A DNA stretch of 64,000 nt from Lysobacteraceae bacterium (GTDB lineage Bacteria; Pseudomonadota; Gammaproteobacteria; Xanthomonadales; Xanthomonadaceae), in contig JAEUPQ010000014.1 of the NCBI GenBank assembly GCA_016789405.1, positions 230,347 through 294,346 of the forward strand, read 5' to 3'. Made by a program: the position numbers and the translations under genes. The notes beneath the pieces were generated by a model that was not told the origin of the DNA, made no database searches, and saw nothing but the letters and a program-made list of their open reading frames with translations. Below, in pieces: positions 48-62,822 of this stretch (position 1 is its first letter; every line of letters starts with the position of its first letter).

Positions 48-113
48 GACGGCGATCGCGAATGCCATCGGGACTACACTCCAATGCGTCCCATACCCCT
101 TGTCGCGATCGTC
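48..113 (+). ncRNA. Y RNA-like copy 1, lacking the tRNA module
   Basis: This is the first of seven repeats of one RNA architecture. The basal helix pairs 53-60 with 104-111 over 8 perfect pairs. The internal loop has AATGC (61-65) on the left strand and TTGTC (100-104) on the right, as in every other copy. The upper helix pairs GGGAC (70-74) with GTCCC (88-92). Unlike copies 2-7 there is no T-arm, acceptor stem or D-arm, and the helix is closed by a 13-nt loop that still starts with TACAC. It could be a minimal Ro-binding Y RNA without tRNA mimicry, or a deletion derivative. The pairing is read directly from the sequence; the Y RNA assignment is inference from the architecture and from rtcBA downstream. 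Confidence 0.6.
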
Positions 114-122
114 ATGCTCCCC

Positions 123-304
123 ACCGTCGACGATGGAGAATGCAGGAAAAACTACACCTTATGACGGTCCAGGTCGTGGGTTCGAGTCCCACCTGCCGCG
201 CCAACATCATGGCTGCCGATCCACGATCGGCAGTCCTATGCGGCAGTAGCTCAGTCGGATAGAGCAGGCACGTTTTTCCGATCCTTGTCTCCGTTGTCGT
301 CGGT
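123..304 (+). ncRNA. Y RNA-like copy 2 with tRNA-like module
   Basis: The upper helix pairs 145-152 with 272-279 over 8 perfect pairs. The basal helix pairs GGAGA (135-139) with TCTCC (288-292) and GACGA (129-133) with TCGTC (297-301). Between them lie AATGC (139-143) and TTGTC (285-289). The tRNA-like part is circularly permuted. The T-arm (176-192, loop TTCGAGT) comes first. Next is an acceptor stem of CTGCCGC (193-199) paired perfectly with GCGGCAG (240-246), followed by a D-arm (249-265). The 40-nt acceptor loop begins GCCA, so a CCA triplet (201-203) follows the acceptor strand as in a real tRNA 3' end. The same loop contains a perfect 9-bp hairpin (213-221 with 225-233). This is the YrlA-type layout: tRNA mimic at one end, Ro-binding helix at the other. 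Confidence 0.75.
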
Positions 305-312
305 CTTTCATC

Positions 313-341
313 CGTCATCCCGAGCGCAGCAAGGGGTGACG
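313..341. repeat. REP-like palindrome between Y RNA copies 2 and 3
   Basis: CGTCATCCC (313-321) pairs with GGGGTGACG (333-341), with one G-T pair, around an 11-nt loop. The sequence has the look of the short extragenic palindromes common in high-GC proteobacteria. It lies in the spacer between two RNA units and not inside a unit's conserved helices. No function is visible. Confidence 0.45.
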
Positions 342-360
342 ACAACCAGGTTTCACCTCG

Positions 361-490
361 TCGGTCGCGAATGCCGACGGAACTACACACTCTTAATGTC
401 CGGGTCGCGGGTTCGAATCCCGCTCGTCGCAGGTGATCGCGACGGTAGCTCAGCGGTAGAGCAGGTGTTCCGTCATTCTTGTCGCGCTCG
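361..490 (+). ncRNA. Y RNA-like copy 3 with tRNA-like module
   Basis: The upper helix pairs GACGGAAC (376-383) with GTTCCGTC (467-474) over 8 perfect pairs. The basal helix has CGCG (366-369) with CGCG (483-486). The internal loop has AATGC (370-374) and TTGTC (479-483). The tRNA-like module is a T-arm (407-423, loop TTCGAAT), then acceptor strands TCGTCGC (424-430) and GCGACGG (439-445) closed by 8 nt, then a D-arm (448-462). The 3' strand also contains CTCTTAA followed by TGTCC (390-401), resembling the anticodon loop and stem of a tRNA-Lys(CUU). This hints that the module was derived from a genuine tRNA. No complementary 5' strand faces it in the permuted fold. Confidence 0.75.
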
Positions 491-519
491 ATGATGCTTC
501 GGTTCAATTGCTTCAACGT

Positions 520-657
520 CGTCTCCATCGAATGCAGGTGGAACTACAGGGGTGCAGAGATCGCAGGTTCGAATCCTGCCCGTTGCCGGCCTGGGGCGGT
601 AGCCGAGCGGTTCAAGGCGCTGCATGAAACGTTCCATCACCCTTTGTCGAAGAGACG
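520..657 (+). ncRNA. Y RNA-like copy 4 with class II tRNA-like D-arm
   Basis: The upper helix pairs GGTGGAAC (537-544) with GTTCCATC (631-638), 8 pairs with one G-T. The basal helix pairs CGTCTC (520-525) with GAGACG (652-657). The internal loop has AATGC (531-535) and TTGTC (644-648). The T-arm is 563-579. Acceptor strands CCGTTGC (580-586) and GGGGCGG (593-599) pair with one mismatch across a 6-nt loop. The D-arm (602-618) has the Ser/Leu-like GCC...GGC form. CTGCA (620-624) and TGCAG (553-557) give a perfect 5-bp helix where the anticodon stem would be. This supports the permuted reading over a linear tRNA-with-insert reading. Confidence 0.72.
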
Positions 658-681
658 ATTCCATTGCTTCACGTTCAACTA

Positions 682-811
682 CGTCGGCCGCGAATGCCGA
701 TGGCGCTCCTTTTTGTCACGGGTTCGAATCCCGTCCGGTGTCCGTCAGTACGCCGGTAGCTCAGCCTGGTAGAGCAGAAGCAATGCGCGCCATCCCGTCT
801 TGTCGCAGACG
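682..811 (+). ncRNA. Y RNA-like copy 5 with tRNA-like module
   Basis: The upper helix pairs GATGGCGC (699-706) with GCGCCATC (787-794) over 8 perfect pairs. The basal helix has GCG (690-692) with CGC (804-806) and CGTC (682-685) with GACG (808-811). The internal loop has AATGC (693-697) and TTGTC (800-804). The T-arm is 718-734 (loop TTCGAAT). Acceptor strands CCGGTGT (735-741) and ACGCCGG (750-756) pair fully, with one G-T, across an 8-nt loop, and the D-arm is 759-775. The upper helix differs in sequence from the other copies but is fully compensated. This is direct evidence that base pairing is conserved. The TACA element that follows the upper helix in the other six copies is absent here. 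Confidence 0.75.
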
Positions 812-828
812 ACGATCAACGGTTCCAG

Positions 829-950
829 CGGCGAATGCTGGCGGAAGTACACGGGTAAGCGCGGCTCGTCCGCGCGACCGGGTTCGAGCCCCGGGCACAA
901 GGTCATCCGGCCCTGTGGCGTCACAACACCTTCCGTTCCACTTGTCGCCG
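829..950 (+). ncRNA. Y RNA-like copy 6, degenerate D-arm
   Basis: The upper helix pairs GGCGGAAG (840-847) with CTTCCGTT (930-937), 8 pairs including two G-T. The basal helix pairs CGGCG (829-833) with CGCCG (946-950). The internal loop has AATGC (834-838) and TTGTC (942-946). The T-arm is 878-894. The acceptor-like strands CACAAGG (896-902) and CCCTGTG (911-917) form 6 of 7 pairs across 8 nt. A GC-rich hairpin (859-864 with 870-875) sits where a class II variable arm would be. No clear D-arm follows, so the tRNA mimicry is weaker than in copies 2-5. An ORF begins 10 nt after the basal helix. Confidence 0.65.
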
Positions 951-960
951 TTTCCTTTCA

Positions 961-1458
961 ATGACGGTCCCAAATCGCTTTACGAAATGCTTGGCCATGA
1001 AGACATCTCGCTGCGACAAAAGATTACGATGCCACGACTGGACTCAATCGGGAATTGTCGCGCTGTGGCATTACGAAGAGCCGAATCGGAATTACCTCGG
1101 CTGGCATCTCAATGCCGATGGGCGCGGATGCACGTCGCTTTGCGAACTCATCGATGCGATGGTCGCAGACGGTGCCGGCGCAACGCGCCGGATCACGATC
1201 ACTGCACCGTCGCGAGCCATGCTGGCTGTTCCGAATTGCCGGCAAGGCAAGCCGATTTCGCCGCAGACATTGCGTCTGTCTGTGCACAGGAGCAAGAACG
1301 AATGGCGCTTCTCGTCCGATGCGATCTCCGCAGAGATCAGGCTCGGCGAAACATGGCTGCATCGTCTGCGCCAAGGGATCGTTTCCATTCATCAAGGCAA
1401 TGGCGACTACTCGATCGGAGCCGGCAGCAAAGATCAACAATTGTGGTTCTGGTGGTAA
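961..1458 (+). CDS. Unknown 165-aa protein inside the Y RNA array
   Basis: I do not recognise this protein. It fills almost exactly the gap between RNA copies 6 and 7: it starts 10 nt after one basal helix and stops 24 nt before the next. The sequence looks protein-like, with a balanced composition, no strong GC-rich artefact signature, and a central region running IVALWHYEEPNRNYLGWHL to a tryptophan-rich end LWFWW. There is no signal peptide or membrane segment. The start is uncertain: ATG 961 has no obvious ribosome site and ATG 997 (MKTSRCDKR) is the alternative. Codon choice appears less GC-rich than the flanking rtc genes, which suggests a different origin. Position suggests a role with the Y RNAs or with RtcBA, but this is inference only. 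It could also be a decayed mobile insertion. Confidence 0.55.
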   Translation: MTVPNRFTKCLAMKTSRCDKRLRCHDWTQSGIVALWHYEEPNRNYLGWHLNADGRGCTSLCELIDAMVADGAGATRRITITAPSRAMLAVPNCRQGKPISPQTLRLSVHRSKNEWRFSSDAISAEIRLGETWLHRLRQGIVSIHQGNGDYSIGAGSKDQQLWFWW

Positions 1459-1482
1459 GGCTGCCGGAACCCCGAACTTTCA

Positions 1483-1597
1483 TGCGGCAAATGCCTGTGG
1501 AACTACATGGTTCCCCTCACGGGTTGGGTTCAAGTCCCACTGCACGAATGGCCGATGCCCTTCGGCGTAGAGAATTCCACACTTTTTTGTCGCCGCA
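1483..1597 (+). ncRNA. Y RNA-like copy 7, adjacent to rtcB
   Basis: The basal helix pairs TGCGGC (1483-1488) with GCCGCA (1592-1597). The upper helix pairs TGTGGAA (1496-1502) with TTCCACA (1575-1581). The internal loop has AATGC (1490-1494) and TTGTC (1587-1591). A T-arm (1525-1539, loop TTCAAGT, 4-bp stem) and a capped acceptor-like stem (1545-1551 with 1558-1564, 6 of 7 pairs) are present. A D-arm is not apparent. The unit ends 29 nt before the rtcB ATG, so it is either the last processed RNA of the transcript or part of the rtcB leader, where its folding could affect ligase translation. Confidence 0.68.
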
Positions 1598-1626
1598 CCT
1601 TCAACAGTAATGCGAGAATTCGAGCT

Positions 1627-3013: not shown

Positions 3014-4036
3014 ATGACCGAGATGATCGAAATCGACGGCTCCGCCGGCGGCGGGCAGCTGCTCCGCACGGCCTTGAGCCTGAGCCTGTGCACCGGCACG
3101 GGCTTCACCATGACCCGCATCCGTGCCAAGCGTTCGAAGCCGGGCCTGATGCGCCAGCACCTGACCGCGGTGAATGCCGCGGCGAAGATCGGCAATGCCT
3201 TCGTCGAAGGCGCGGAGCTGGGCGCGACCACTTTGCGCTTCACGCCCGGCGTGGTCTCTGCGGGCGACTACCGCTTCGCGACCGGCAGCGCCGGCTCGGC
3301 GATGCTGGTGTTGCAGACCATCCTGCCGCCGCTCTCGCAATGCGATCGTCCGTCGACGCTGCGGCTCGAAGGCGGCACGCACAATCCCATGGCGCCGAGC
3401 GCGGACTTCCTGATCGACACCTTCCTGCCGGCGGCGGCGAAGATCGGCATCGAGGCGAGCCTGCGCATCGAGCGCCCGGGCTTCTTCCCGGCCGGCGGCG
3501 GCATCGCGCATGCGACCGTGCTGCCGGCGACGGGGCTGCGCCAGGTCGAACTCCTCGATCGCGGCTCGAAGTTGGGCATGTCGGCGACCGCCATGCTTTC
3601 CGCGCTTGCAACGAACATCGGCGAGCGCGAGCTGGATGTGCTGATGCGTCGCCTGCACCTGCCGCGAGACGCGATGCGCGTGCACGAGGTGCGCCCGCCG
3701 GTCGGCCCGGGCAACGTGCTGCTGCTGCGCGTCGAGCACGAATCACACGCCGAAGTGTTCACCGGCCACGGCGAGCGCGGCATCACCGCCGAGCGTGTCG
3801 CGGAACGGCTGAGCGAGGAGGCGGGTCACTACCTGCGCAGCAGCGCCTGCGTTGGCGAGCACCTGTCCGATCAGCTCCTGCTGCCGATGGCGTTGGCCGG
3901 GGGTGGTTCGTTCACCACGCACCTCGTCAGCGACCACCTGAGCAGCAACGCACGGCTGATCGAGAAGTTCCTGCCGGTCGAAATCGACTGGACCGAGGAA
4001 GCACCGCAGCGCTGGCGTGTACGGGTCGCCTCCTGA
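3014..4036 (+). CDS. rtcA: RNA 3'-terminal phosphate cyclase RtcA
   Basis: RtcA uses ATP to convert RNA 3'-phosphates (and 2'-phosphates) to 2',3'-cyclic phosphates, which are substrates for RtcB. The 340-aa protein opens with EIDGSAGGGQLLRTALSLSL, the family signature. The adenylated histidine is expected in SDHLSSN, at about residue 308, which matches His309 of E. coli RtcA. TGSAGSAMLVLQTILPPL and PGFFPAGGG are further conserved stretches. It lies 160 bp downstream of rtcB on the same strand and most likely shares its transcript, with two hairpins in the gap. Nothing suggests truncation. Confidence 0.96.
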   Translation: MTEMIEIDGSAGGGQLLRTALSLSLCTGTGFTMTRIRAKRSKPGLMRQHLTAVNAAAKIGNAFVEGAELGATTLRFTPGVVSAGDYRFATGSAGSAMLVLQTILPPLSQCDRPSTLRLEGGTHNPMAPSADFLIDTFLPAAAKIGIEASLRIERPGFFPAGGGIAHATVLPATGLRQVELLDRGSKLGMSATAMLSALATNIGERELDVLMRRLHLPRDAMRVHEVRPPVGPGNVLLLRVEHESHAEVFTGHGERGITAERVAERLSEEAGHYLRSSACVGEHLSDQLLLPMALAGGGSFTTHLVSDHLSSNARLIEKFLPVEIDWTEEAPQRWRVRVAS

Positions 4037-5293: not shown

Positions 5294-6894
<1,601 letters not shown>

Positions 6895-7759: not shown

Positions 7760-9342
<1,583 letters not shown>

Positions 9343-62728: not shown

Positions 62729-62822
62729 GCCGACGTGACGGAATTGGTAAACGTATCGCTACAGCGATCCCATGAGATCCTCGATTTCATGGGTGCAGGT
62801 TCAACCCCTGCCGTCGGCTTCC
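62729..62822 (+). ncRNA. tRNA-Leu-like RNA in the first cassette, no usable anticodon loop
   Basis: Acceptor strands GCCGACG (62729-62735) and CGTCGGC (62812-62818) pair perfectly. A Leu-type D-arm (ACG, then GAATTGGTAA, CGT; 62738-62754) and a T-arm (62795-62811, loop TTCAACC) are clear. The variable arm is an 11-bp hairpin with a CTC triloop (62769-62793). In place of the anticodon arm is ATCGC-TACA-GCGAT (62755-62768), a 5-bp stem with a 4-nt loop, so no normal anticodon can be displayed. TTCC follows; CCA is not encoded. It is the only recognisable content of cassette 1. It may be a tRNA mimic, decoy or decayed tRNA gene. Confidence 0.7.

What the first reader, a model, noticed from the sequence alone, without database searches (positions are those of the whole stretch)
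48..1597. Tandem array of seven Y RNA-like tRNA mimics upstream of rtcBA
Seven units share a helix with an internal loop of invariant AATGC and TTGTC. Upper helices of 7-8 bp (copies 2-7) differ in sequence but stay fully paired, so pairing is conserved. In six units a circularly permuted tRNA module (T-arm, capped acceptor stem, D-arm) replaces the terminal loop. Acceptor strands pair within a unit across 6-9 nt (40 nt in copy 2). Known Y RNA loci next to rtcBA (for example YrlA of Salmonella) carry one or two such RNAs; I know of no description of a seven-copy array.
Basis: partly seen in the sequence, partly recalled or inferred. Interest (0 to 1): 0.95.

Follow-up and report, generated by a model that had tools for sequence, protein, structure and literature searches.

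The report
Y RNAs carrying complete permuted tRNAs
Beside its RNA-repair genes this bacterium carries seven predicted Y RNA genes in a row, and two of them spell out an entire rearranged tRNA, anticodon loop included, which likely serves as a tRNA look-alike for enzymes that cut or repair tRNAs.

Summary
The seven units are real and lie between rsr (Ro60 homologue, just left of the window) and rtcBA, behind divergent rtcR and a sigma54-type promoter sequence. Both Y helices pair within units better than between units, and covary in relatives. Arrays are not rare: 52 of 74 named rsr loci carry three or more units by a covariance model built here; seven is the top of a continuum. Only units 2-5, not six, carry T-arm, acceptor and D-arm.

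The surprise is an anticodon arm. In units 2 and 3, and in 68 of 110 full modules from 72 loci, the segment before the T-arm forms 3 bp plus a 7-nt loop exactly 7 nt upstream of the T-stem; positions 27-28 pair with 42-43 in all 68. With canonical numbering this is a complete tRNA, permuted so that the Y helix enters the anticodon stem between 28 and 29 and the acceptor end is closed. Most loops keep U33 and a purine at 37, while 34-36 vary; unit 3 has the host tRNA-Lys(CUU) loop. A quarter of modules with a 7-bp acceptor keep N73-CCA. The feature recurred in genomes not used to find it. The mechanism (look-alike or bait for tRNA-attacking enzymes) is inferred. Key primary papers were not held.

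The parts
53..111 (+). Y unit 1: short Y RNA without tRNA module (lower helix, AATGC/TTGTC loop, 5-bp upper helix)
   Evidence: not matched by Rfam or by R1
131..296 (+). Y unit 2: complete permuted tRNA module with anticodon arm, acceptor with encoded G73-CCA and a further 36-nt linker
   Evidence: Rfam YrlA 66.6 bits; model R1 119.1 bits (unit 2 is among the sequences R1 was built from)
156..168 (+). anticodon arm of unit 2: ACC-UUAUGAC-GGU (loop 159-165), positions 29-41; pairs 27-28:42-43 are 267-268 with 169-170
   Evidence: positions counted
200..203 (+). G73-CCA directly after the 7-bp acceptor 3' strand of unit 2
362..490 (+). Y unit 3: complete permuted tRNA module with anticodon arm
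   Evidence: Rfam YrlA 58.7 bits; R1 128.4 bits (in the R1 set)
387..399 (+). anticodon arm of unit 3: ACA-CUCUUAA-UGU (loop 390-396, equal to the host tRNA-Lys(CUU) anticodon loop)
   Evidence: positions counted
523..655 (+). Y unit 4: T-arm, imperfect acceptor, D-arm; no 3-7-3 anticodon hairpin
   Evidence: Rfam 40.7 bits; R1 82.7 bits (in the R1 set)
685..811 (+). Y unit 5: T-arm, 7-bp acceptor, D-arm; no anticodon hairpin
   Evidence: Rfam YrlA 72.2 bits, over gathering score
826..953 (+). Y unit 6: T-arm and extra hairpin, no canonical D-arm
   Evidence: R1 34.8 bits (not in the R1 set)
1482..1598 (+). Y unit 7: T-arm and GC hairpin, no canonical D-arm
   Evidence: Rfam 28.8 bits; R1 32.1 bits (not in the R1 set)
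961..1458 (+). 165-aa ORF between units 6 and 7; no Pfam or PADLOC match, 5 protein homologues at 47-93% identity
1627..2853 (+). rtcB, RNA ligase
   Evidence: Pfam RtcB E 4e-131
3014..4036 (+). rtcA, RNA 3'-phosphate cyclase
   Evidence: Pfam RTC E 6.4e-73

Best explanation
The window holds seven Y RNA-like units between rsr and rtcB, and units 2 and 3 spell out a complete circularly permuted tRNA, anticodon arm included, whose anticodon stem is interrupted between positions 28 and 29 by the helix predicted to bind Rsr; such RNAs likely act as Rsr-bound tRNA look-alikes that would draw anticodon nucleases and other tRNA-acting enzymes away from real tRNAs. Shown by sequence: operon order, unit anatomy, covariation of the helices, the anticodon-loop signature, N73-CCA in part of the family. 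Inferred from published work on the Salmonella operon: transcription by sigma54 and RtcR when cleaved tRNAs appear, Rsr binding of the lower helix, PNPase tethering. Inferred here: units differ in module type (none, T-arm only, three arms, four arms with a varied anticodon loop) because they serve different client enzymes. A cut in the anticodon loop would leave both ends held by the Y helix, so RtcB, made from the same operon, could reseal it.
For: Operon rtcR / rsr - array - rtcB - rtcA; the same order in 9 of 11 fetched relatives, L067 ending before rtcA and L073 without an rtcR match. Covariation: 22 units, 92.7% of cells paired against 80.9% shuffled, 21 of 31 pairs with two-sided changes; 61 anticodon-bearing units, 97.9% against 81.7%, covariation 0.453 against 0.150, slid versions at most 0.095; the anticodon stem alone 92.7% paired with two-sided changes in 2 of 3 pairs. 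Those 61 were chosen for having the hairpin, so the fair test is: hairpin at one fixed place in 60 of 98 distinct sequences, 1-10 of 98 at other offsets, shuffled mean 9.6, maximum 19 in 5000. 27-28:42-43 paired in all 68 hairpin modules kept (68 of 70 called); 35 of 40 modules without the hairpin pair there too, so this supports the tRNA numbering, not the hairpin itself. Loop, 47 distinct 13-mers: U33 41, purine 37 43, both 37; high entropy at 34 and 36. 12 of 49 equal a host anticodon loop, letter-shuffled mean 0.27, maximum 3 in 2000. N73-CCA 17 of 66 at offset 1, 0/1/0/0 at offsets 0, 2, 3, 4. New genomes: 5 of 10 new modules have the hairpin, all 5 with 27-28:42-43. In 7 unit-2 orthologues the loop differs at 0.43 per site while anticodon stem and 42-48 do not differ. 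Operon activation by cleaved tRNAs, and the competitive-inhibitor idea for YrlA, are in PMC7790460 (passages and section 17).
Against: No transcript, binding or cleavage data. Hughes et al. (PMC7790460, passages) saw no YrlA fragments in Salmonella, though the Salmonella-type YrlA examined here has no perfect arm at that place. The 3-bp stems are weak alone (0 and -0.4 kcal/mol) and the minimum-energy fold of unit 3 misplaces its D-arm and anticodon arm; 30 of 200 shuffles fold as well, z -1.18. Units 4-7 and 42 of 110 full modules lack the arm. C33 occurs in loops of L069, L070, L097, L144, L148 and L161, and A34, rare in bacterial tRNAs (recalled), in 8 of 47 13-mers. D-arm, T-arm and acceptor of the units do not point to one host tRNA.
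Confidence: 0.42

Rival explanations
1. Conventional model: Y RNAs only gate and tether Rsr (to PNPase); the tRNA module is a general elbow mimic and the anticodon arm an inherited relic of the ancestral tRNA. The array raises dose.
For: Published role of YrlA/Rsr/PNPase (PMC8394870 passages). 42 of 110 modules have no anticodon hairpin; stems are weak.
Against: A relic should decay: the 3-bp stem changes on both sides in 2 of 3 pairs, 37 of 47 distinct arms keep both U33 and a purine at 37 while 34 and 36 are near-random, and stem and variable loop do not change at all in 7 unit-2 orthologues.
Confidence: 0.38
2. Retained substrate for modification enzymes or synthetases of the anticodon loop: the RNAs titrate or store TruA, MiaA, Tgt, LysRS and the like.
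For: Anticodon-type loops with A37; N73-CCA in 17 of 66 modules. YrlA is reported to be modified by DusA and TruB (PMC8394870 passage).
Against: Closed acceptor ends prevent charging unless cut; anticodons are diverse, so no single enzyme fits.
Confidence: 0.12
3. Cryptic permuted tRNA genes: the Y helix is removed and RtcB joins 28 to 29, and RNase P and 3' processing open the acceptor to give a working tRNA.
For: Order 29-76, linker, 1-28 is that of permuted tRNA genes (PMC3978253 passages); RtcB lies next door; N73-CCA at the right place in 17 of 66 modules.
Against: No bulge-helix-bulge at the junction by inspection; 8-nt caps in many modules and acceptors shortened to 5 bp with tight loops in others; acceptors match no host tRNA.
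Confidence: 0.03
4. The hairpin is a chance or alignment effect.
For: Three base pairs are few and minimum-energy folding does not favour them.
Against: Fixed position, covariation and replication in new genomes.
Confidence: 0.03

Closest known systems
YrlA Y RNAs (Rfam RF02553; Salmonella YrlA)
   Same: Location between rsr and rtcB, Y helix with AAUGC and UUGUC loop, T-arm, closed acceptor, D-arm
   Different: Rfam's consensus has no anticodon arm: the 13 nt are printed as an insertion. The Salmonella-type YrlA (L248) has 2 of 3 pairs, not a perfect 3-7-3 hairpin, at that place.
YrlB (Rfam RF02565)
   Same: Short Y RNA without tRNA module, like unit 1
   Different: Unit 1 was not matched by any Rfam family at E up to 1
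Circularly permuted tRNA genes of red and green algae and archaea
   Same: 3' half before 5' half, linker between acceptor strands, CCA encoded in some (PMC3978253 passages)
   Different: Ends lie at 28/29 and carry a Y helix instead of a bulge-helix-bulge; part of an RNA-repair operon of bacteria; no splicing known
tmRNA and phage-encoded tRNAs or tRNA repair systems
   Same: tRNA-like RNA, or response to anticodon cleavage
   Different: Different fold plan; tmRNA lacks the lower half of the cloverleaf with the anticodon (PMC3929946, start of abstract in the listing); no Rsr in tmRNA (recalled)

Membership tests
YrlA (RF02553) | Score over Rfam gathering threshold | tested here: inconclusive
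   1 of 7 units (unit 5, 72.2 bits); units 2, 3, 4, 7 below threshold, units 1 and 6 unmatched at E up to 1
YrlA (RF02553) | Y helix with conserved internal loop | tested here: met
   All seven units
YrlA (RF02553) | tRNA-like D-arm, T-arm and acceptor | tested here: met
   Units 2, 3, 5 by strict test, unit 4 with mismatches; not met in units 1, 6, 7
YrlA (RF02553) | Gene next to rsr | tested here: met
   rsr ends at L003:7988, 64 nt before unit 1
YrlA (RF02553) | Binding to Rsr; tRNA-type modifications | not testable with these tools
   Needs RNA and protein
Canonical tRNA cloverleaf (permuted) | 7-bp acceptor, 4-bp D-stem, 5-bp anticodon stem with 7-nt loop, 5-nt variable loop, 5-bp T-stem with 7-nt loop | tested here: met
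   Units 2 and 3; 61-unit alignment. Met as pairing potential and covariation; free-energy folding does not find it. Anticodon stem interrupted by the Y helix
Functional permuted tRNA gene | Bulge-helix-bulge at the junction and splicing to a tRNA | tested here: not met
   No such motif on reading units 2 and 3: the junction is a 7-8 bp helix with an AAUGC/UUG loop; splicing itself not testable
RtcR-controlled RNA repair operon | Divergent rtcR, sigma54 promoter, rsr-Y RNA-rtcBA order | tested here: met
   promoter TGGCACggggaTTGC at L003:6370-6384 matched by eye to the recalled consensus

The most novel reading that the evidence does not exclude
Bacterial Y RNAs are re-sealable anticodon baits that also report damage: each array displays a varied set of anticodon loops on permuted tRNAs held by Rsr; an anticodon nuclease cuts the bait, the Y helix keeps the ends together, RtcA and RtcB reseal it, and bait fragments with cyclic phosphate ends feed RtcR in a positive loop. 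Loop variation in 34-36 would be an arms race with nucleases of toxins, defence systems and phages.
Probability: 0.17. Interest if true: 0.93.

Novelty: new variant of a known kind. Interest (0 to 1): 0.76.

Why it matters
What bacterial Ro60 and its tRNA-like Y RNAs do beside the RNA ligase RtcB is open. An anticodon loop inside the Y RNA, in an operon reported to be switched on by anticodon-cleaved tRNAs, gives a direct handle: test whether the loop is cut, protected, modified or sealed. It would also correct the picture of these RNAs as tRNA mimics without an anticodon arm, and suggests a route of origin: the junction of two tandem tRNA genes (positions 29-76, spacer, 1-28) captured on a Ro-binding stem.

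Tried and rejected
Ordinary tRNA pieces: the D-arm, T-arm and acceptor of units 2-5 do not point to one host tRNA; best acceptor identity is 12 of 14 for unit 2 (tRNA-Gly(UCC)) and 9 of 14 for units 3, 4 and 5. tRNAs shared between neighbouring units: Rfam tRNA joins the D-arm of unit 3 to the T-arm of unit 4 (40.3 bits) and that acceptor pairing is 7/7 against 6/7 within unit 4; since 10.8% of cross pairings among 16 non-redundant acceptors are perfect, it was not pursued. Choice of anticodons: U35 in 17 of 29 distinct loops with U33 and purine 37, against 10 of 40 host anticodons (Fisher p 0.006), but 10 of 20 distinct triplets (p 0.08): suggestive only. Column-shuffled loops still give 5.3 host matches on average, 4 of 2000 reaching 12. 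Single-sequence folding does not recover the cloverleaf. Many R1 matches in the phylum search cover about model positions 25-112 and look like tandem tRNA genes, so its 47 of 398 genomes is not a count of Y RNA carriers. In one search, 3 of 10 same-genus genomes gave no YrlA match. One search was an ill-chosen alignment and not used.

Counts and rows dropped: the 11 relatives fetched are those with the best YrlA matches. Of the 80 loci, six (L088-L092, L115) were left out as the same contigs as relatives already held; the 80 are the rsr loci nearest to the query, not a random sample. The tally uses 265 of the 267 matches; two partial ones in L154 (positions 46-105) were dropped. One search found 126 modules, of which 110 with both Y boxes were used. 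Two mis-called rows (L122 and a second L144 row) are in the counts out of 70 and 49 (and may be in those out of 98) and were dropped for 68 and 47; they are also the two modules that fail 27-28:42-43. From 64 reference units 61 were aligned; L100, L131 and L134 were left out for awkward length or linkers. Of the 30 loci, ten (L251-L260) were examined.
Full report
Setting. The stop codon of rsr ends 12 nt before the window. In the same genome, upstream (L003), lie rsr (ATG at 6438 by eye, stop at 7988; Pfam vWA_Ro60 and TROVE), a sequence TGGCACggggaTTGC about 53 nt before that ATG that fits the recalled sigma54 consensus, and divergent rtcR (Pfam RtcR E 1.1e-77). Downstream of the array are rtcB and rtcA. 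The 11 genomes with the best YrlA matches among 59 searched were fetched: 9 show rtcR, rsr, rtcB and rtcA around a similar spacer; L067 ends before rtcA, and no rtcR match was found in L073. Three of 10 genomes of the same genus had no YrlA match. Closest named relatives are Lysobacteraceae and Lysobacter MAGs.

The array. Seven units carry AATGC and TTGTC. The 5' strand of each helix fits its own 3' strand better than those of the other units (lower 6.14 against 4.83, upper 6.71 against 5.26 of 7 pairs; 29 and 8 of 20000 permutations). For the window's four acceptors alone the test is not significant (1602 of 20000); for 32 non-redundant units of 12 loci (16 for the acceptor) no permutation of 20000 reaches the observed value for any of the three helices. 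Twenty-two full units aligned (A3) give 92.7% paired cells against 80.9% in shuffles and two-sided changes at 21 of 31 pairs. Rfam YrlA recognises five units, one over threshold.

Arrays are common. Model R1, built from A3, was run on 86 loci. Among 74 named rsr loci (of the 80; six were the same contigs as relatives already held) there are 0, 1, 2, 3, 4, 5, 6 units in 2, 5, 15, 26, 18, 7, 1 cases; the two zeros are contigs that end 96 and 237 nt after the rsr match. The window has six by R1, seven by motif. A contig with the Salmonella-type operon shows YrlB, YrlA and a third unit. So seven is the largest seen here but not a new arrangement.

The anticodon arm. In Rfam's alignment units 2 and 3 have a 13-nt insertion between CUAC and the T-arm. 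It reads ACC-UUAUGAC-GGU and ACA-CUCUUAA-UGU. I then took every module in 84 loci with T-arm, acceptor and D-arm (126) that also has both Y boxes: 110 modules in 72 loci. A perfect 3-bp stem with a 7-nt loop ending exactly 7 nt before the T-stem is called in 70, 68 after dropping two mis-calls, in 59 of the 72 loci. Among 98 distinct sequences it is 60 at that place and 1-10 at places shifted by up to 4 nt; other loop lengths give 0-9; dealing the 3' strands out anew gives 9.6 on average and 19 at most in 5000. Eleven different stem pairs occur. The two nucleotides after position 26 pair with the first two of the 7-nt linker in all 68, as GG:CC (48) or CG:CG (20); over the 70 called, shuffled maximum 52, slid 1-13. 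This pairing is also present in 35 of 40 modules without the hairpin, so it fixes the numbering rather than proving the arm. The other five linker nucleotides are mostly AGGUC-like, as in a 5-nt variable loop. Counted from the acceptor, the parts take canonical tRNA numbers, and the Y helix sits between 28 and 29. In 61 such units, chosen for the hairpin, 97.9% of cells pair against 81.7% shuffled, with covariation 0.453 against 0.150 and at most 0.095 when slid.

Is the loop an anticodon loop? Of 47 distinct 13-mers, 41 have U33, 43 a purine at 37, 37 both; with the two mis-called rows included, entropy is 1.98, 1.37 and 1.87 bits at 34-36 against 0.73 at 33 and 0.87 at 37. Twelve of 49 (7 of 41 distinct loops) equal one of 40 anticodon loops read from this genome (Lys, Asp, Arg, Glu, Met, Tyr); shuffling letters gives 0.27 on average and 3 at most in 2000, shuffling columns 5.3 on average with 4 of 2000 reaching 12. 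Unit 3 has the Lys(CUU) loop; unit 2 matches none. In 7 units judged orthologous to unit 2 the loop differs at 0.43 per site, the anticodon stem and 42-48 at 0, D-arm 0.05, Y upper helix 0.07, acceptor 0.08, T-arm 0.10, Y lower helix 0.27. Bearers are mostly Proteobacteria; a Phycisphaerales genome (L143) has one, and of the Verrucomicrobia or Akkermansiaceae loci only L121 (Luteolibacter) has the stem, with C37, while L133, L138, L149 and L163 have none. Of 14 modules called in viral contigs, 5 show a perfect stem: L185 and L192 with loops CUUCGAA and CUUGUAA, L175 and L201 with A33, and L214, which lacks the usual box and is probably chance.

The acceptor end. Of 66 modules with at least 6/7 acceptor pairs and a cap of 4 nt or more, 17 have CCA one nucleotide after the acceptor strand, i.e. 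N73-CCA, against 0, 1, 0, 0 at offsets 0, 2, 3, 4. Unit 2 is one of them. Several of the 17 are close relatives (three unit-2 orthologues, five Rhizobium-type loci). Many other modules have 8-nt caps, or 5-bp acceptors with tight loops.

Replication. A search of 398 genomes of the phylum with R1, which models no base pair in the anticodon arm, gave 30 loci; in the ten with the best matches other than the window's own (L251-L260), 10 modules not seen before were read: 5 have the hairpin at the fixed place, all 5 with 27-28:42-43, two with the loop CUUUUAA of tRNA-Lys(UUU); 5 of 10 have N73-CCA.

Against. Folding alone does not support it: stems of 0 and -0.4 kcal/mol, and unit 3 folds otherwise. 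Forty-two of 110 full modules lack the arm, as do units 4-7. Rhizobium-type loops and two unit-2 orthologues have C33. There are no RNA data.

Mechanism. From PMC7790460 (passages, section 17): the operon is switched on by tRNA fragments with cyclic phosphate, and the authors suggested that the tRNA-like domain might inhibit the nuclease; they saw no YrlA fragments. The Salmonella-type YrlA examined here has no perfect 3-7-3 arm, so that result does not test arms such as those of units 2 and 3. I infer that four-arm units present an anticodon loop to enzymes that attack or handle tRNAs, held by Rsr, while three-arm and armless units serve other partners. That RtcB could reseal a cut loop is inference.

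Literature. Seen: passages of PMC7790460 (and its section 17), PMC8394870, PMC9879122, PMC4726728, PMC8058203, PMC7824862, PMC9569102, PMC3978253. Searches: YrlA with anticodon (3 papers, passages of all three seen), Ro60 with Y RNA and anticodon (17 listed, passages of three seen), noncoding Y RNA with tRNA mimic or anticodon arm (10 of 22 listed, passages of two seen). Nothing in those listings or passages describes an anticodon arm in Y RNAs; PMC8394870 names only D, T and acceptor arms. The primary papers (Chen 2014, Wang 2018, Sim and Wolin 2018, Sim 2020) are not held, so novelty is provisional. That Chen 2014 reports at least one tRNA-like Y RNA per species is recalled.

Noticed in passing
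window 961-1458: A 165-aa protein of unknown family lies between Y units 6 and 7; five homologues at 47-93% identity. Five relatives (L064-L068) appear to have a different small ORF inside their arrays, read by eye and not translated by a tool.
   Followed up: partly
L064-L067, L069-L071, L094-L096, L099, L101, L110, just after rsr: A strong GC hairpin with the loop AATGGG sits between rsr and the first Y unit in 13 of 84 loci, with compensatory stem changes; the window has a variant (GATGGGG) at about 5-31, seen by eye.
   Followed up: partly
L248:922-1036: A third Y-like unit after YrlB and YrlA in the Salmonella-type operon, below Rfam's threshold (31.7 bits at 924-1037).
   Followed up: partly
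window 62729-62819: A tRNA-like gene of 91 nt for which ARAGORN names no amino acid ('tRNA-???'; Rfam tRNA 42 bits).
   Followed up: no
L064, L065, L067, L068 between rsr and rtcB: Decayed-looking units that kept T-arm or D-arm but lost the AATGC strand, a sign of fast turnover within the arrays (read by eye).
   Followed up: no
L073 between rsr and rtcB: Several near-identical repeats of roughly 130-140 nt, most with one AATGC strand, before the Y units (read by eye).
   Followed up: no
OR845705.1 and OR851267.1: Two short unannotated records filed as phage clones carry rsr-like sequence at about 50% identity; OR851267.1 also holds Y RNAs and the start of rtcB; likely host DNA in phage assemblies.
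   Followed up: partly
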